From Synechococcus sp. Tobar12-5m-g (GTDB lineage Bacteria; Cyanobacteriota; Cyanobacteriia; PCC-6307; Cyanobiaceae), in the NCBI RefSeq assembly GCF_024345415.1, contig NZ_JAGQBB010000024.1:1-34919 (forward strand): a DNA stretch of 34,919 nucleotides, given 5' to 3'. Positions 2,589 through 11,172 of this stretch are shown piece after piece. The stretch's first letter is position 1, and the number at the start of each line of letters is the position of its first letter. The position numbers and the translations under genes are program-made. The notes beneath the pieces are model-generated. The model saw nothing but the letters and a program-made list of their open reading frames with translations, had not been told where the DNA came from and did not search any database.

Positions 2589-3641
2589 ATGATGCCCAAA
2601 CCGTCTCTCGACCCCCAGCCGCGGCGCATTCTGCTCACTGGCGCCAGCTCAGGCCTCGGCTTTGAAGCTGCCGTGCGCCTTCGCCGCGCCGGCCACCAGC
2701 TCACCCTGCCCTGCCGGGATGGGCCCACGGCCGAGACCACCTTGGATCGCCTCGAAGGCGAGGCGACCTCCGGCCCACCACCTGTGGCACCCCTGTGCGA
2801 TCTGGCCGACCTGGCCAGCGTTGAGCGCTGCGCCGCCGATTTGCTGCGCCGGGGTGAGCCCATCGACTGCCTGGTGCTCAATGCCGGCCTTCAGTACAGC
2901 GGTTCCCCTGCGCCAAGGCGCTCCGCCCAGGGCCATGAGCTCACCATCGCCGTGAACCACCTCGGCCACCAGGCCCTGGCCCAGCGCCTGCTCCCCTTGC
3001 TCGATGGCGGCCAGGCCCCCCGGGTGGTGGTCACCGCCTCGGAGGTGCATGATCCCGCCGCAGCAGGTGGCCGGGTCGGCAAGCCGGCCGGCCTGGGTGA
3101 TCTGGAAGGGCTCAGAGCAGGCCTGATCACGGAATCGGGCCTCACGATGATGGTGGCTGGTGGCTTGCCGTTCAATGCCGACAAGGCCTACAAGGACAGC
3201 AAACTCTGCAACCTGTTGTTCGCCCGTGAGCTGGAGCGGCGACTGCGGCTGCGGGGCACACCGATGCCGGTGCTGGCCTGGAGCCCTGGCCTGGTGATCC
3301 CGCGCAGCGGCGGCGGCTTCTTTCGCTACAGCCGCCGCCACAACGAATGGGGCCAACGCCTGTTTGCCCTGCTGGCCCGCGATCTCCTGCGCATCACCGC
3401 AACCCCTCAGCAGGCCGGGGTGCTGCTGGCGAGCCTCTGCACCGATCCAGCCTTCGGGGACACGGGGTTCAGCTACTGGAGCAACCGGGTGCTGGGCCCC
3501 GGGCGCCTGCGCTTCGCGCAGACCCATCCCAGTGCTGAAGCCCTCGACGACGGCCTGGCCCAGACGTTGTGGGCGATCAGTGCGAAGCTGGTGGGGTTGG
3601 CTGATGCCTTGCCCCAAACCAGGACCACCCGGCAGCTTTGA
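2589..3641 (+). CDS. Short-chain dehydrogenase, protochlorophyllide-reductase-like
   Basis: The 350-residue Rossmann oxidoreductase has the NAD(P) motif TGASSGLG (17-24), LVLNAG (95-100), a serine in VVTASEV (near 151) and the catalytic YKDSK (201-205). The AYKDSKLCN context and the overall length resemble the light-dependent protochlorophyllide reductase and retinol-dehydrogenase branch of SDRs. The true POR of chlorophyll synthesis is more conserved, so this is better called a POR-like paralogue with an unknown substrate. Two adjacent ATGs (2589 and 2592) are possible starts. It converges on the response-regulator gene with 71 bases between the stops. Confidence 0.85.
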   Translation: MMPKPSLDPQPRRILLTGASSGLGFEAAVRLRRAGHQLTLPCRDGPTAETTLDRLEGEATSGPPPVAPLCDLADLASVERCAADLLRRGEPIDCLVLNAGLQYSGSPAPRRSAQGHELTIAVNHLGHQALAQRLLPLLDGGQAPRVVVTASEVHDPAAAGGRVGKPAGLGDLEGLRAGLITESGLTMMVAGGLPFNADKAYKDSKLCNLLFARELERRLRLRGTPMPVLAWSPGLVIPRSGGGFFRYSRRHNEWGQRLFALLARDLLRITATPQQAGVLLASLCTDPAFGDTGFSYWSNRVLGPGRLRFAQTHPSAEALDDGLAQTLWAISAKLVGLADALPQTRTTRQL

Positions 3642-3712: not shown

Positions 3713-4360
3713 TCAGTGGCGAGGCCTCAGTTTCAACACCGCCTGGGTGCGGTTGGCCACCTCCAGCTTCTGCATGATCGCGTGGCCGTGCACCCGCACC
3801 GTGCCGAGGCCGATGCCCAGCTCGACGGCGATCTCGCGGTTGCTCAGCCCCCGGGCCATCGCCTCCAGCACCTGGCGCTCCCGCGGTGTCAGCAGCGCCA
3901 GGGCGTCGGCCTCGCTCGTGGCGCTCTCGCCGGCCTGCGGCCCGCCCTGAGTGCCCAGCTCCCGCAGGGCGGCGGTGGCGTCTGCGTCCCACCAGGAGGC
4001 ACCCCGCAGCACCGTCTGGATCGCCAGTTGAAGGTCGGCTGCGGCCACCCCCTTGCGCACATAGCCCCGGGCGCCCGCCCGCATCATCCGCAGGCACCAG
4101 GCGGGATCCTCCTGGCTGGTGACCACCAGCACCGGGATCGTTGGGTGATCGGCGGCGATGCGGCGGCAGGTCTCCAGCCCCCCCAGCCCCGGCAGGCCCA
4201 GATCCAGCAGGATCACATCGAACGATTGATGGCGCAGCAGATCGAGTGCCTGCTCGCCATCGCCCACGGCCGTCACCAGTTCGATCACCTCGAAACCCTG
4301 GAGCGTGACCTCCAGCCCGAGCCGGAACAGTTCGTCGTCTTCCACCACCAGGGCCCGCAT
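3713..4360 (-). CDS. NarL/FixJ-type response regulator
   Basis: The 215-residue protein has an N-terminal receiver domain: acidic pocket EDDE at 7-10, phospho-acceptor D53 in ILLDLGLPG and conserved lysine K103. A C-terminal LuxR-type helix-turn-helix follows (LTPRERQVLEAMARGLSNRE, then GTVRVHGHAIMQKL). It should bind DNA after phosphorylation. The start MRALVVEDDE was chosen because it is the family's normal N-terminus; the frame stays open further upstream, but into the kinase gene. It lies 4 bases after the histidine kinase gene, so the two form a two-component pair. The pair is divergent from kdpA, which suggests control of potassium uptake; that is inference from position, since classical KdpE is OmpR-type, not NarL-type. 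Confidence 0.9.
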   Translation of the reverse strand: MRALVVEDDELFRLGLEVTLQGFEVIELVTAVGDGEQALDLLRHQSFDVILLDLGLPGLGGLETCRRIAADHPTIPVLVVTSQEDPAWCLRMMRAGARGYVRKGVAAADLQLAIQTVLRGASWWDADATAALRELGTQGGPQAGESATSEADALALLTPRERQVLEAMARGLSNREIAVELGIGLGTVRVHGHAIMQKLEVANRTQAVLKLRPRH

Positions 4361-4364
4361 CGGC

Positions 4365-5456
4365 TCAGCCTCCTTCGGGCGGGGGCTCAGCGCTGCCCTG
4401 GGGCAGCAGCACCTCGATCTCGGCGCCACCGCCGGGCCGGTTGCGCAGGCCGATCGTTCCCCCGTGGGCGTTCACGATCTGGCGGCAGAGGTAGAGCCCC
4501 AGGCCGCTGCCCGGCCGCTCCTCGGAGAGCCGCTGGAAGCGTTGGAACAGCTTGGAGATCTCCTGTTCCGGCACCCCCGGGCCGCCATCGGCAACCCGCA
4601 GCTGGAGACCGTTGCTGCGGTTCTCCAGCACCAGCTGGATCTGGCCGCCCCGCAGGCTGTGGTGGATGGCGTTGAGCAGCAGATTCTCCACCAGCCGCCT
4701 GAGCTGGGCCCCATCGCCGATCAGCAGATGCGGATGCCACTGCGATGCCTCACCGAAGCCCAGGCGCAGGGTGAGTTGCCGTTCCTGGGCCAGCGCCGAG
4801 AGCTCCCGGATCACCTCCTCCACCAGGCGTGTGAATTCCACCTCCACGGACTGCAGCACAAGACCCTCGGCGTCGTTGCGGTAGACCTCCAGCAGGGTCT
4901 GAATCTGGGCCAGGGCGCGGCTCTGGCCCCGCTCGATCGTGGCCAGGGTGCGCTCCAGCAGGGGCCCCTCCCGGCTCTGGCGGCTGGAGGACAGGCTGCG
5001 CAGGGTGGCGATCGTTCCCAGGATCGGCGTCTTGAGGTCATGGGCGAGGGTGGCGACGAAATCCCGCCGCAGGTCTTCCACGGCCAGCTGGCCCTCCAGG
5101 TGAAGCCGCTGGCGCTGCAGGCCCTGGATGCGCAGGCACTGGCGCGCGGTGAGCACCAGGGCGCCGCAGACCAGCAGGCGGTTCATGAGCACCGAGCCGC
5201 TGATCGGTGTGAACTCCGGGATCACAAGATTGGAGAGGGTGAGCCCGCACGTCAGGGCCACAAAACTCCAGATCGTTCTCGGCCGAGCCGTTTCACTCAA
5301 CAGGATCAGCGGCAGCACATAGAGATAGGCCAGCACCACCTGCACCGGGGTGATCACCTCCACCAGGGCCACCGCAGCGGTGAGGGCCGCCGCCTGCCCG
5401 CCGGGTGAGGCCAGCGCCGCTATATCTCCGGATAGGGACCGGCCGTTCACATCCAT
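4365..5456 (-). CDS. Membrane-bound sensor histidine kinase
   Basis: The 363-residue kinase has four hydrophobic segments in roughly residues 20-105 and no PAS or HAMP domain that I can see. A DHp helix follows with the phospho-acceptor H139 in LAHDLKTPI. The HATPase domain has an N-box (NLLLNAIHH), G1 (DGGPGVP) and G2 (GSGLGLYLC). It should autophosphorylate and pass the phosphate to the regulator encoded 4 bases downstream. With so little outside the membrane, it may sense a membrane or turgor-related signal or a membrane partner. It starts 73 bases from kdpA on the opposite strand. Since the KdpD here has no kinase half, this enzyme is a candidate functional partner (inference). Confidence 0.9.
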   Translation of the reverse strand: MDVNGRSLSGDIAALASPGGQAAALTAAVALVEVITPVQVVLAYLYVLPLILLSETARPRTIWSFVALTCGLTLSNLVIPEFTPISGSVLMNRLLVCGALVLTARQCLRIQGLQRQRLHLEGQLAVEDLRRDFVATLAHDLKTPILGTIATLRSLSSSRQSREGPLLERTLATIERGQSRALAQIQTLLEVYRNDAEGLVLQSVEVEFTRLVEEVIRELSALAQERQLTLRLGFGEASQWHPHLLIGDGAQLRRLVENLLLNAIHHSLRGGQIQLVLENRSNGLQLRVADGGPGVPEQEISKLFQRFQRLSEERPGSGLGLYLCRQIVNAHGGTIGLRNRPGGGAEIEVLLPQGSAEPPPEGG

Positions 5457-5503
5457 ACCCTCCGCTAGTAGCGCCCAACTCCAGGGCGGTCGACAGTGAA
5501 CGG
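5443..5503. promoter_or_regulatory. Inverted repeat at the kinase/kdpA divergent promoter
   Basis: The 8-base arms CCGTTCAC (5443-5450) and GTGAACGG (5496-5503) are perfect inverted repeats, 45 bases apart. They flank the kinase start codon and the short kinase-kdpA intergenic region, and similarity extends outward (GGACC before the left arm, GTCC after the right). This could be an operator for a dimeric regulator acting on both directions. The left arm lies inside the kinase's first codons, so chance or coding constraint is also possible. Confidence 0.3.
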
Positions 5504-5529
5504 GTCCCCCGAACCGGACGCTACCGCCG

Positions 5530-7197
5530 ATGATCGACTGGATTCAGGTCGCCCTGCTGCTCGCCCTCGTGCTGGGCTCCGCCCCGCTGCTGGGGCGTCA
5601 CCTCTGGCAGGTGTACGACAATCGATCCCAGCCCCTGCTGGATGGCTGGCTCACCCCCGTGGAAACATCCCTGCTGCGGTGGGTAGGGGACCCGGGCCGC
5701 CCAGCCGAGCAGGCCTGGGACTACCTGCGCCCCCTGCTGCTGAGCAACATTCTGTTCGGTGCCGTGGCTTTTCTGCTGCTGCTCCTCCAGCCCGCCTGGC
5801 TGAACCCCCTGGGGCTGCCGGGGGTGCGCTGGGACACGGCCCTGCACACCGCCATCTCCTTCCTCACCAACACCGACCAGCAGCACTACACCCCCGAGCA
5901 GACCCTCAGCGACTTCACCCAGCTCGGGGCGCTGCAGTTCCTGTTCTTCACCTCCGCCGCCACCGGCCTGGCGGTGGGCTTCGCCTTCATCCGCGGCCTC
6001 TGCGGCCGCCCCCTGGGCAACTTCCACTGGGATCTGGTCCGCTCGATCACCCGGGTGCTGTTACCCCTCAGCCTGGTGTTCGGCCTGATCCTCCTGATCA
6101 ATGGTTCTCCCATGACCCTGGGCGGGCCGGTGACCCTTCGCACCCTGGAGGGGGCCACCCAGATCCTGGGGCGGGGCCCGGTGGCCGCCTTCGAGGCGAT
6201 CAAGCAGCTGGGCGAGAACGGGGGTGGCTTCTACGGCGCCAACTCCGCCCACCCCTTCGAGAACCCCAACCCGTTCACGAACCTGCTGGCGATGGTGGCC
6301 ATGTTCGCCATCCCCGCTGCCACGATCGACGCCTTCGGCCGTTTCCTTGGCAACCGCCGCCAGGGCACCCTGCTGTTGCTGCTCGTCACCGGTCTCTTTC
6401 TGGGGCTGGCCGTGGTGGCGATCAAGGCCGAGCAAGCGGGCAACCCCCTGCTGGCCCCCTGGCTCAGTGGACCCAACCTGGAGGGCAAGGAGGTGCGCTT
6501 CGGCGCCGCCTTGTCGGCCCTGTTCGCCACGATCACCACCGGCTCGATGACCGGAGCGGTGAACGCAGCCATGGATTCGCTGATGCCCCTGGGGGGCCTG
6601 GTGCCCCTGTTCAACCTGTTTTTGCAAGTGGTGTTCGGCGGCCAGGGCACCGGCGTTGCCTACCTGCTCGTGTTCCTGATCCTCACGGTGTTCCTCACCG
6701 GGCTGATGGTGGGCCGCACCCCCGAACTGTTCGGACGCAAGGTGGAGAAGGCGGAAGTGGTTTACAGCAGCCTGATCCTGCTGATCCACCCGGTGTTCGT
6801 GCTGGTGCCTGCCGCCATCACGATTGGCTTCCCCGCTCTCCAGGGCATCAGCAACCCCGGCTTCCACGGCGTCAGCCAGGTGGTTTACGAATACGCCTCG
6901 GCCGCCGCCAACAACGGCAGTGGCTTCGAGGGCCTGGGCGACGGCACGGTGTGGTGGAACCTCAGCGCCATCGTCAGCCTGCTGGGGGGTCGCTACCTGC
7001 CGATCATCGCCCTCTTGTTCCTGGCGGCCGGCTTCTCCCGCAAACAACCCGTACCCCCCAGCCAGGGCACCCTGGCCACCGACACCGGCCTGTTCACCGT
7101 GGTGACCGCCGTGGTGATCCTGATCCTCGGCGCCCTCACCTTCTTCCCGGTGCTGGCCCTGGGGCCGATCGCCGAAGCCTTCTCGCTCCCTCGCTGA
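5530..7197 (+). CDS. kdpA: Potassium-transporting ATPase, K+-binding subunit KdpA
   Basis: The 555-residue integral membrane protein matches KdpA in length (E. coli KdpA has 557 residues) and in its four pore-loop repeats: [42 protein letters not shown] and [11 protein letters not shown]. In the KdpFABC complex of the plasma membrane, KdpA forms the selectivity filter and takes up K+ at low external potassium, powered by KdpB. It is the first gene of the operon, and kdpB follows after 16 bases. No strong ribosome site is visible before the ATG. Start choice is supported by the normal N-terminus of the family (W, then Q, then a hydrophobic helix). Confidence 0.97.
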
Positions 7198-7213
7198 CCG
7201 CCTCGCGGCTCCC

Positions 7214-9310
<2,097 letters not shown>

Positions 9311-9320
9311 AGCTCCTGAG

Positions 9321-9506
9321 ATGTTCTTCACCAAGCCCCTCTTCTGGATCCCCCTGCTGCTCGCGGCCGGGGCGGTGGCGGCCTCCTCGCCCCTGCGCCT
9401 CTTCCATCCGCCCCTGCAGACCGGCGCCCTTTCGTTGCTGCTGAGCGGCACCGTGGCGCTCTCGATCTACCTGTTCGCCGTGATGATTCAACCGGAGAAA
9501 TTCTGA
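9321..9506 (+). CDS. kdpF: Small Kdp membrane subunit (KdpF/KdpG-like)
   Basis: A 61-residue protein with two hydrophobic segments ends in YLFAVMIQPEKF. This resembles the KdpF tail (Tyr-Leu, hydrophobics, then Pro-Glu-Lys/Arg-Phe). KdpF stabilises the KdpABC complex. In enterobacteria kdpF is first in the operon; here the gene sits between kdpB and kdpC, as described for the small kdpG gene of Anabaena. It is about twice the length of E. coli KdpF because of an extra N-terminal membrane span. Its stop overlaps the kdpC start (TGATG), so translation is coupled. Confidence 0.85.
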   Translation: MFFTKPLFWIPLLLAAGAVAASSPLRLFHPPLQTGALSLLLSGTVALSIYLFAVMIQPEKF

Positions 9507-10078
9507 TGACCCTGTTTCGCGATGCCCTCCGGGCCCTGAGGCTCACCGCTGCGCTGTGGCTGATCACCGTGGTGCTCTACACCCTTCCCCTGCTGGGGAT
9601 CGGCCAAGGGCTGTTCCCCGCCCAGGCCAACGGCTCCCTGTTGCGGGTCGATGGTCGGGTGGTGGGCTCAGCCCTGATCGGCCAGCCCTTCGCCACCGCT
9701 CGCTACTTCCTGAGCCGTCCCAGCGCCGTCGACTACAGCACCGGTAAGCAACCCAGCTCTGCCCCCAGCAACCTCGGTCCCACCAACCCCGATCTCGTCA
9801 AGCGCATCACCGCAGCATCCAAGGTGCTGCAAGGGGCAGGGCTGAAGGATCCCTCCCCCGATCTGCTCTACGGCTCCGGTTCGGGCCTCGATCCCCACAT
9901 CTCGCCGCTGGCCGCCGAGCAGCAGATCGAGCGTATCAGCGCCCAGCGGCAACTGACCCCCCAGCAGCTGCGGCAGATGGTCCGCCGCCACACCGAGGGC
10001 CGGACCCTTGGGATTCTGGGGGAGGCGCGGGTCAACGTGCTGGAACTCAACCTGGAGCTGGATCGCCGTTCGCCATGA
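9506..10078 (+). CDS. kdpC: Potassium-transporting ATPase subunit KdpC
   Basis: The 190-residue protein has one N-terminal membrane span (about residues 12-33) and a soluble domain. Typical KdpC motifs are present: GSALIGQPF, a YFLSRPSAVDY segment and SGSGLDPHISP, with a final VNVLELNLELD. KdpC is the periplasm-facing subunit thought to assist K+ loading and stabilise KdpA-KdpB. The length fits the family. The start overlaps the kdpF stop by one base and the stop overlaps the kdpD start (ATGA), indicating a tightly coupled operon. Confidence 0.97.
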   Translation: MTLFRDALRALRLTAALWLITVVLYTLPLLGIGQGLFPAQANGSLLRVDGRVVGSALIGQPFATARYFLSRPSAVDYSTGKQPSSAPSNLGPTNPDLVKRITAASKVLQGAGLKDPSPDLLYGSGSGLDPHISPLAAEQQIERISAQRQLTPQQLRQMVRRHTEGRTLGILGEARVNVLELNLELDRRSP

Positions 10079-11172
10079 TCAGGATCAGGGGGCGGGGCCG
10101 CCACAAGCTGTTCATCGGCATGGCACCGGGGGTCGGCAAGACCTTCCGCATGCTCCAGGAAGCACAGCAACTGCGGCGTGACGGCACTGACGTGGTGATC
10201 GGTGTGCTCGAAACCCATGGCCGCGCCGACACCGCTGCCCAGGCCGAGGGCCTCGAGCGGGTGCCCCTGCGGCGCTTCCAGCACCAAGGGGTCTGGCTGG
10301 AGGAACTGGACCTTGCCGCCCTGCTGCTGCGCCGAGCCCAGTTGGTGCTGGTTGACGAGCTGGCCCACACCAATGCCCCCGGCAGCGAGCGGACGAAGCG
10401 CTGGCAGGACGTGGAACTCCTTCTGGCCTCGGGTCTGGATGTCTACTCCACCGTGAACATCCAGCATCTGGAGAGCCTCAACGATCTGGTGGCCCAGCTC
10501 ACCGGCGTGGTGGTGCGCGAGCGGCTGCCGGATCGGGTGCTGGAGCGGGCCGATGAGGTGGTGCTGGTGGACGTCACCCCCGAGACCCTGCAGGAGCGTT
10601 TGCGCGGCGGCAAGGTGTACGCCAGCGAGAAGGTGGGCCAGGCCCTCGCCAACTTTTTTCAGCGCCGCAACCTGGTGGCCCTGCGGGAGCTGGCCCTGCG
10701 GGAGGTGGCCGATCGGGTCGACGACGAAACCCCGCTCGACAGCTCCCTGCGCGAACGGGTGCTGGTCTGTCTCTCCACCTATCCCGAATCGAAGCGGCTG
10801 CTGCGCCGCGCTGCCCGCCTGGCGGGCTTCATGGATGCCCCGCTGTTGGTGGTGATCGTGCTCAATCCCCAGACCTTCCTGAGCCGGGAGGAGGGGGTGT
10901 TGCTGGAGGAATGCACCCGGCTCTGCGACGACTTCGGTGGTGAATTCCTGCGCATCGACAGCGACGACGTGCTCGGTTCGATCGCGAAGGTGGCGATCGA
11001 ACGGCGGATCACCCAGATCGTGATGGGCCAGTCGCCGCGCTCCAGGGGCCGGGCCCTCCTGGGCCGCTCCCTCTCCGAGAAGCTGCAGCAGCGGCTGGCC
11101 GGCAGGAACGTGGATCTCCACCTGATCGCCGACGACCCGCCCACGGCGGCAGGTGCGTTGACGCGACCCTAG
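10075..11172 (+). CDS. kdpD: Short KdpD: sensor and USP domains without kinase
   Basis: The 365-residue protein contains the KdpD N-terminal domain, with Walker A GMAPGVGKT, Walker B LVLVDELAHTN and the GLDVYSTVNIQHLESLND block. A universal-stress-protein-like domain follows (about 225-350, including IVMGQSPRSRG). It stops there: the four membrane spans, the histidine and the ATPase of full KdpD (about 890 residues) are missing. Short KdpD proteins are known from cyanobacteria such as Anabaena, so this is a natural form rather than a fresh truncation. It cannot phosphorylate a regulator alone. It may modulate another kinase, possibly the one encoded divergently upstream of kdpA. It is the last gene of the operon. 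Confidence 0.95.
   Translation: MIRIRGRGRHKLFIGMAPGVGKTFRMLQEAQQLRRDGTDVVIGVLETHGRADTAAQAEGLERVPLRRFQHQGVWLEELDLAALLLRRAQLVLVDELAHTNAPGSERTKRWQDVELLLASGLDVYSTVNIQHLESLNDLVAQLTGVVVRERLPDRVLERADEVVLVDVTPETLQERLRGGKVYASEKVGQALANFFQRRNLVALRELALREVADRVDDETPLDSSLRERVLVCLSTYPESKRLLRRAARLAGFMDAPLLVVIVLNPQTFLSREEGVLLEECTRLCDDFGGEFLRIDSDDVLGSIAKVAIERRITQIVMGQSPRSRGRALLGRSLSEKLQQRLAGRNVDLHLIADDPPTAAGALTRP

What the first reader, a model, noticed from the sequence alone, without database searches (positions are those of the whole stretch)
3713..11172. Kinase-less KdpD next to an unrelated membrane kinase and NarL-type regulator
The kdp operon ends in a KdpD with the sensor (Walker) and USP domains but no kinase. 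Divergent from kdpA sits a complete two-component pair whose kinase is nearly all membrane and catalytic core, and whose regulator is NarL-type rather than the OmpR-type KdpE. A split system, in which short KdpD gates a separate kinase that controls kdp, would be a new arrangement. Short KdpD itself is known from cyanobacteria; the pairing is inference from position.
Basis: partly seen in the sequence, partly recalled or inferred. Interest (0 to 1): 0.72.

Follow-up and report, generated by a model that had tools for sequence, protein, structure and literature searches.

The report
Known two-branch control of potassium pump
A cyanobacterium carries a high-affinity potassium pump, a neighbouring sensor-regulator pair that most likely switches the pump genes on, and a short protein that most likely switches the finished pump off; this layout is already described in related bacteria, so the window is a further example rather than a new system.

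Summary
A kdpA-B-F-C operon ends in a 365-aa KdpD that has the Walker and Usp domains and no kinase. Divergent from kdpA lie a small histidine kinase (HK) and a NarL-type response regulator (RR).

The guess that the pair controls kdp is well supported. In 290 cyanobacterial genomes this HK occurs in 122, of which 117 also have kdpA. Of 132 HK genes, 78 lie within 3 kb of kdpA and divergent from it.

It is not a new arrangement. Deinococcus radiodurans has the same layout with a NarL-type RR, which is required for kdp induction and binds the promoter (PMC5716572). An Anabaena RR is reported to bind a kdp promoter (title only).

Gating of the HK by short KdpD is not supported. KdpD and HK occur without each other, and short KdpD is published as a serine kinase that inhibits the pump through KdpB (PMC11018627). 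Most of its catalytic residues and the target serine are conserved here.

By-product: a repeat, CTAAACG, not found with kdp in the paper library, marks 38 of 60 HK-kdpA regions in other cyanobacteria. The window's own 73-bp region lacks it.

The parts
3713..4360 (-). NarL/LuxR-type response regulator (215 aa)
   Evidence: Response_reg 2.2e-24 and GerE 2.7e-19; start at ATG 4360 chosen from alignment A3 and read
4365..5456 (-). membrane histidine kinase (363 aa): about four N-terminal helices, HisKA, HATPase_c; kdp-associated lineage
   Evidence: AlphaFold2 model mean pLDDT 85.8
5457..5529 (.). divergent intergenic region between HK and kdpA, 73 bp; lacks the CTAAACG repeat found in other cyanobacteria
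5530..7197 (+). kdpA
   Evidence: PF03814 8.9e-209; TIGR00680 above cut-off
7214..9310 (+). kdpB; Glu179-Ser180 match E. coli Glu161-Ser162, Asp326 matches Asp307
   Evidence: TIGR01497 1081.5 bits; residue mapping
9321..9506 (+). small hydrophobic open frame in the kdpF/kdpG position (61 aa)
   Evidence: translation; position matches annotated KdpF in PCC 7002, T. variabilis and PCC 6714; no family search was run on it
9506..10078 (+). kdpC
   Evidence: PF02669 4e-62
10075..11172 (+). short KdpD: KdpD (Walker) domain + Usp domain, no kinase part
   Evidence: PF02702 1.5e-93, Usp 1.6e-06; NF038185 374.9 bits, below its curated cut-off of 550

Best explanation
Two separate control branches act on one potassium pump. 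Branch 1 (transcription): the kinase at 4365-5456 senses low K+ or a linked membrane state and phosphorylates the NarL-type regulator at 3713-4360, which activates kdpA-B-F-C-D from the shared divergent region. Branch 2 (protein level): the short KdpD is an atypical serine kinase. When K+ is high it uses its Walker A/B site to phosphorylate KdpB Ser180 and so stops the pump, possibly under a second messenger such as c-di-AMP acting through its Usp domain. KdpD does not need to gate the kinase. Shown here: gene content, conservation of most catalytic residues and of the target serine, co-occurrence and linkage of the HK with kdp, and separability of KdpD and HK. Inferred from published homologues: the activating role of the RR, the serine kinase activity and the K+ signal. 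Inferred more weakly: c-di-AMP as the input in this organism.
For: HK linkage: 117 of 122 HK-bearing genomes have kdpA, and 78 of 132 HK genes are divergent from kdpA within 3 kb. In a named set, 59 of 80 are divergent from kdpA, 9 of 80 follow KdpD, and 74 of 80 have the RR directly after the HK. The same HK/RR layout is annotated in Picosynechococcus 7002, Synechocystis 6714 and Trichormus variabilis plasmids. D. radiodurans: same layout, NarL-type RR; the published RR deletion abolishes KdpB induction and the RR binds the promoter. Synechocystis 6803: slr1731 (KdpD), sll1590 (HK) and sll1592 (RR) are all higher in a slr1821 mutant than in wild type under ammonium stress (log2 4.93, 3.13, 2.19; slr1728 also higher). 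Serine kinase branch: E. coli Walker A, Asp109, Glu110 and Arg190, and KdpB Glu161 and Ser162, all have conserved counterparts. A short KdpD from Deinococcus geothermalis phosphorylates E. coli KdpB. A diadenylate cyclase is encoded in this genome. Separability.
Against: I saw no functional data for this organism. E. coli KdpD Trp39, an adenine-contacting residue, is Phe24 here. The S. aureus c-di-AMP motif SXS-X20-FTAXY is absent from all 11 KdpDs aligned, so c-di-AMP control is doubtful. The window's 73-bp divergent region lacks the CTAAACG repeat, so RR control of this particular promoter rests on homology. The D. radiodurans RR is only 31% identical to the window RR, hardly more than E. 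coli KdpE at 27%, and its HK is 27% identical; no tree was made, so common descent of the two pairs is not shown. In one family genome (L028) the RR frame as read lacks the GerE part. Four genomes carry the HK with neither kdpA nor KdpD found, and 27 of 132 HK genes are unlinked or on another contig. The HK profile was built from kdp-linked members, which biases the survey towards linkage.
Confidence: 0.72

Rival explanations
1. Split sensor: soluble short KdpD binds the membrane kinase and gates it, so that both together make one functional KdpD.
For: Strong co-occurrence of KdpD and HK (112 of 130 KdpD genomes). In some genomes the HK is beside KdpD without kdpA within 3 kb (11 HK genes). 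In six of the 151 family genomes searched the HK follows KdpD on the same strand.
Against: Sixteen genomes have kdpA and KdpD without the HK; in 14 of them the HK sensor domain is absent even by a sensor-only profile, while control genome G265 rings. Several of these are draft assemblies, but G178, G208 and G234 are single contigs. Single-contig genome G265 has kdpABC, HK and RR with no KdpD domain. When KdpD lies apart from kdpA it rarely has the promoter repeat upstream (2 of 17; what lies directly upstream was not identified). Short KdpD already has a published independent job.
Confidence: 0.08
2. Short KdpD is a leftover of a full KdpD and has no function; the HK/RR pair does everything.
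For: The HK/RR pair persists without KdpD in at least one single-contig genome.
Against: Walker A, Walker B and Arg190 counterparts are invariant in all 11 sequences aligned, Deinococcus and E. coli included. KdpD is found at E <= 1e-60 in 127 of 135 kdpA genomes.
Confidence: 0.05
3. The HK/RR pair controls something else, and its place beside kdp is only shared ancestry of the neighbourhood.
For: Twenty-seven of 132 HK genes are unlinked or contig-broken, and four genomes have the HK without kdpA or KdpD found. No CTAAACG repeat at the window's own promoter.
Against: Linkage persists through several gene orders: divergent from kdpA, after KdpD, and beside KdpD only. The D. radiodurans pair acts on kdp. 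The pair changes together with kdp genes in Synechocystis.
Confidence: 0.1

Closest known systems
Deinococcus radiodurans kdpBAC-kdpD-N with divergent SK/RR (DR_B0081/DR_B0082; PMC5716572, Introduction and Results part 1 of 2 read)
   Same: Short KdpD at the operon end; HK and NarL-type RR divergent and immediately upstream. RR deletion abolishes kdp induction and the RR binds the promoter.
   Different: Gene order starts with kdpB, not kdpA. The HK is longer (515 aa) and 27% identical to the window HK; the RR is 31% identical. Common descent of the two pairs was not tested by a tree.
Synechocystis sp. PCC 6803 Sll1590 (Hik20) / Sll1592 (Rre19) and PCC 6714 plasmid pSYLC pair
   Same: NarL-type RR; Sll1590/Sll1592 are called homologous to KdpD/KdpE (PMC7090099 passages). 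The PCC 6714 pair is divergent from kdpA across the record start and its HK and RR are 38% and 44% identical to the window proteins.
   Different: Intergenic region much longer. That the 6714 pair is the counterpart of sll1590/sll1592 is recalled, not tested.
Anabaena sp. L-31 kdp response regulator (Ballal and Apte 2008, title only, from the reference list of PMC5716572)
   Same: An RR reported to bind the kdp promoter region in a cyanobacterium.
   Different: Sequence and RR type not seen here.
Deinococcus geothermalis short KdpD (PMC11018627, abstract, two results sections and discussion part 1 of 2 read)
   Same: KdpD+Usp domains only; serine kinase acting on KdpB.
   Different: Its c-di-AMP response was measured; the window protein's input is unknown.
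Escherichia coli KdpD/KdpE
   Same: N-terminal kinase site mostly conserved and KdpB target serine conserved.
   Different: One long KdpD with its own histidine kinase; KdpE is OmpR-type (Trans_reg_C).

Membership tests
Short (kinase-less) KdpD | KdpD domain followed by Usp domain | tested here: met
   PF02702 1.5e-93 and Usp 1.6e-06
Short (kinase-less) KdpD | no histidine kinase part | tested here: met
   no HisKA/HATPase match; gene ends at 365 aa
Short (kinase-less) KdpD | NCBIfam NF038185 curated cut-off of 550 bits | tested here: not met
   374.9 bits; also 0 of 290 cyanobacterial genomes reach it, so the model was probably set for another group (inference)
KdpD atypical serine kinase | Walker A GxGKT, Walker B Asp-Glu, Arg190 | tested here: met
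   G19-V-G-K22-T23, D94-E95, R175
KdpD atypical serine kinase | Trp39 coordinating adenine | tested here: not met
   Phe24 here; Tyr, Phe or Cys in the other nine short KdpDs aligned, Trp only in E. coli
KdpD atypical serine kinase | KdpB Glu-Ser target | tested here: met
   KdpB E179-S180
KdpD atypical serine kinase | phosphorylation of KdpB measured | not testable with these tools
   needs an enzyme assay
S. aureus-type c-di-AMP-binding KdpD | SXS-X20-FTAXY motif in Usp domain | tested here: not met
   absent in all 11 aligned sequences
kdp-linked HK plus NarL-type RR pair (Hik20/Rre19, DR_B0082/DR_B0081) | adjacent to kdp, divergent from its first gene | tested here: met
   window; relatives
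kdp-linked HK plus NarL-type RR pair (Hik20/Rre19, DR_B0082/DR_B0081) | RR with receiver plus LuxR/GerE domain | tested here: met
kdp-linked HK plus NarL-type RR pair (Hik20/Rre19, DR_B0082/DR_B0081) | common descent with the D. radiodurans pair | not tested
   alignments only, 27% (HK) and 31% (RR) identity; no tree
kdp-linked HK plus NarL-type RR pair (Hik20/Rre19, DR_B0082/DR_B0081) | RR required for kdp induction | not testable with these tools
   published for D. radiodurans only among texts seen
Canonical KdpDE | OmpR-type KdpE and KdpD with its own histidine kinase | tested here: not met
   NarL-type RR and kinase-less KdpD; E. coli KdpE compared

The most novel reading that the evidence does not exclude
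Short KdpD does two jobs: it phosphorylates KdpB and also docks on the separate membrane kinase, so that pump activity and pump gene expression are set by one split sensor. Where KdpD or the kinase has been lost, the remaining half works alone.
Probability: 0.07. Interest if true: 0.6.

Novelty: new member of a known kind. Interest (0 to 1): 0.27.

Why it matters
It shows that the cyanobacterial 'KdpD' is most likely not a histidine-kinase sensor, and that an independent kinase/NarL-regulator pair carries the transcriptional control. Annotations that call short KdpD a 'sensor histidine kinase' (for example) mislead. The survey and the CTAAACG repeat give testable predictions for kdp regulation in laboratory cyanobacteria.

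Tried and rejected
Relation of the HK membrane part to a known sensor domain: Pfam at E <= 1 on all 15 HK members gave only kinase domains at significant scores (one DUF3517 match below its cut-off lies in the kinase core) and chance-level hits otherwise. Foldseek against the PDB matched kinase cores in nearly all of the 50 rows shown (539 matches in all); one row, the kinase of the BceAB-S complex (8g3a_D, rank 49), aligns over 344 columns at TM 0.43, so a resemblance to such transporter-coupled kinases was neither shown nor excluded. No direct comparison with the KdpD membrane part was made.

Finding the CTAAACG operator in the window: not present in the 73-bp region, nor in the 187-column alignment of six relatives that reaches into the HK coding end. 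Conserved blocks there (CATACCC over the HK start, GGACGCTACCGCC next to kdpA) could be promoter parts; no claim is made.

S. aureus-type c-di-AMP motif: tested and absent. The Ser244 equivalent appears kept in the cyanobacterial 'STYP' stretch by eye in alignment A1; not tested further.

Motif upstream of KdpD genes lying apart from kdpA: CTAAACG in 2 of 17; 15 of the 17 are from genomes with the HK and 2 (G160, G178) from genomes without it, one region had only 208 bases, and the genes upstream were not identified.

kdpA+HK genomes lacking KdpD: of six, G392 has a partial KdpD. G241 and G380 may lose it at contig ends, as may G367, whose contig stops after kdpB; in G386 the HK is on another contig than kdpA. 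Only G265 (one contig) is firm. kdpA+KdpD genomes lacking the HK: of 16, two have HK fragments (G335, G345), several are drafts of hundreds of contigs, and single-contig G234 keeps part of an RR between two kdpA genes, so some losses look recent.

Counts and rows dropped: HK 'orthologues' are rows at 293 bits or more; rows at 246 bits or less were left out, the list stopped near 230 bits, and one search scored at most 7 candidates per genome (checked for the 16 genomes only). KdpD counts include fragments that pass E <= 1e-60. For two genomes (G187, G314) the kdpA match was taken from the genome table, as their places were beyond the printed rows. The motif test used 60 of the 85 HK-kdpA pairs. 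The no-HK control was 12 kdpA upstream regions from 11 genomes: ten that kept KdpD, plus G226, which has neither.

Full report
WHAT IS THERE. The window is contig 17 of a 2.95-Mb genome; its closest named relatives by HK sequence include Synechococcus sp. CS-1325 and Cyanobium. Genes on the + strand: kdpA 5530-7197, kdpB 7214-9310, a small hydrophobic kdpF-like frame 9321-9506, kdpC 9506-10078 and a short kdpD 10075-11172. On the - strand: HK 4365-5456 and RR 3713-4360. The RR is receiver + GerE. The HK model (mean pLDDT 85.8) has about four helices before the long signalling helix and then a kinase core; Foldseek's listed matches are nearly all kinase cores. The short KdpD is the only KdpD-domain match in the genome. 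A diadenylate cyclase is also encoded.

IS THE PAIR REALLY TIED TO KDP? In 151 genomes of the family, KdpD above cut-off occurs in 15. The 12 strongest HK matches, the window's own included (226 bits or more; the next is 131), all lie beside kdp (loci). Six are divergent from kdpA as in the window, and six follow KdpD on the same strand. In 290 genomes of the class (selected as at least 90% complete), KdpD occurs in 130 and the HK in 122, and kdpA in 135. Patterns of kdpA-KdpD-HK: all three 111; kdpA+KdpD 16; kdpA+HK 6; kdpA only 2; KdpD+HK 1; KdpD only 2; HK only 4; none 148. Of 132 HK genes, 78 are divergent from kdpA within 3 kb, 6 are within 3 kb of both, 11 are beside KdpD only, 10 are at 3-20 kb and 27 are unlinked or contig-broken. 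In a named set of the best 80 HK relatives, 59 are divergent from kdpA, 9 follow KdpD, 1 has kdp elsewhere in the locus and 11 have none; the RR is next to the HK in 74 of 80. These sets are drawn with a profile of kdp-linked HKs, so they lean towards linkage, and related genomes are not independent.

IS IT NEW? No. In D. radiodurans the MP1 plasmid shows RR and HK divergent from kdpB-A-C and short KdpD, and the RR is NarL-type (GerE 2.6e-18). Sequence identity to the window pair is low (27% HK, 31% RR; E. coli KdpE is 27%), and no tree was made. The published work reports that the RR deletion abolishes KdpB induction and that the RR binds the intergenic region (PMC5716572, Introduction and part 1 of 2 of Results read). 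That paper's reference list names an Anabaena L-31 RR that binds the kdp-promoter region (title only). PMC7090099 (passages) calls Sll1590/Sll1592 homologous to KdpD/KdpE and Sll1592 NarL-type. PMC10094980 (passages) shows sll1590, sll1592 and slr1731 all higher in a slr1821 mutant than in wild type under ammonium stress, log2 3.13, 2.19 and 4.93. PMC11018627 (abstract, sections on mechanism and conservation, discussion part 1 of 2) shows that the KdpD N-terminal domain is a serine kinase acting on KdpB Ser162, that a short Deinococcus KdpD does this under c-di-AMP, and states that kdp in D. radiodurans, Anabaena and Alicyclobacillus is regulated by a separate two-component system.

DOES SHORT KDPD GATE THE KINASE? 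The evidence leans against it. Residue mapping against E. coli gives Walker A K22-T23, D94, E95 and R175, and KdpB E179-S180, all conserved; Trp39 is Phe24. KdpD therefore plausibly has a sufficient job of its own. Sixteen genomes have kdpA and KdpD but no HK. A sensor-domain profile (A5) finds nothing in 14 of them and fragments in 2, with control G265 found; three further family genomes (G032, G074, G022; the last two only 76% and 62% complete) are also negative. Several of the 14 are drafts; G178, G208 and G234 are single contigs, and G234 keeps part of an RR. Conversely, single-contig genome G265 has kdpABC, HK and RR and no PF02702 match. When KdpD lies apart from kdpA, CTAAACG is upstream in 2 of 17. 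Separability does not exclude an added interaction where both are present, so gating keeps a small probability.

A CIS-ELEMENT SEEN ON THE WAY. In 60 of the 85 HK-kdpA divergent pairs (30,638 bases) CTAAACG occurs in 38 regions (2.4 expected from shuffles) and CTAAACGC in 32 (0.8 expected); TATACCTTG occurs in 28 (0.6 expected). Nine of the 60 have not even the half site CTAAAC. Same-direction half sites lie 10-11 bp apart in 16 of 60 regions, and often 59-60, 70-71 or 81 bp upstream of TATACC. Density is 1.70 per kb, against 0.10 per kb in whole loci of the named set, which are mostly coding, and about 0.58 per kb (4 sites in 6,923 bases) in kdpA upstream regions of genomes without the HK. 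There it occurs in 3 of 12; 38 of 60 against 3 of 12 gives Fisher p 0.023 without correction for relatedness. One of the three, G234, keeps an RR remnant nearby. A library search for CTAAACG with kdp listed eight papers, none about cyanobacterial kdp by title. This fits an operator for the NarL-type RR, but binding is untested. The window's own 73-bp region has no such repeat, so if the RR binds there, the site must be different or diverged.

VERDICT. Observation confirmed. Control of kdp by the pair is supported by survey and by published homologues. The layout is already described, so this is a new member of a known kind. The split-sensor mechanism is not supported but not excluded.

Noticed in passing
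L061 (G162:C1:606626-608845), L062 (G192:C1:2869584-2871803); likewise G180, G213, G222, G231, G240, G247: Two KdpD-Usp units lie head to tail in one open frame (about 725-935 aa, stop to stop) in genomes of two cyanobacterial families. In the two read, both units keep Walker A and Walker B. I saw no mention of a fused double KdpD in the passages I read.
   Followed up: partly
HK-kdpA intergenic regions L076-L135: CTAAACG repeats at about one helical turn, upstream of a TATACCTTG element; candidate operator of the NarL-type RR.
   Followed up: partly
L037:4431-5135: In Picosynechococcus 7002 an extra response regulator gene is annotated inside the kdp operon between kdpB and kdpF.
   Followed up: no
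L039:2438-9557: Trichormus variabilis plasmid A has two KdpD-like genes, neither next to kdpC (about 6 and 12 kb away), one of them beside a hybrid kinase, while the HK/RR pair is divergent from kdpA.
   Followed up: no
L028:91-651: In family genome G069 the RR frame as read stops short of the GerE domain (187 aa): frameshift, assembly error or decay.
   Followed up: no
window 2595-3641: SDR-family protein with a sub-cut-off protochlorophyllide-reductase-like match (LPOR 144 bits, cut-off 331), next to the RR gene and convergent with it.
   Followed up: no
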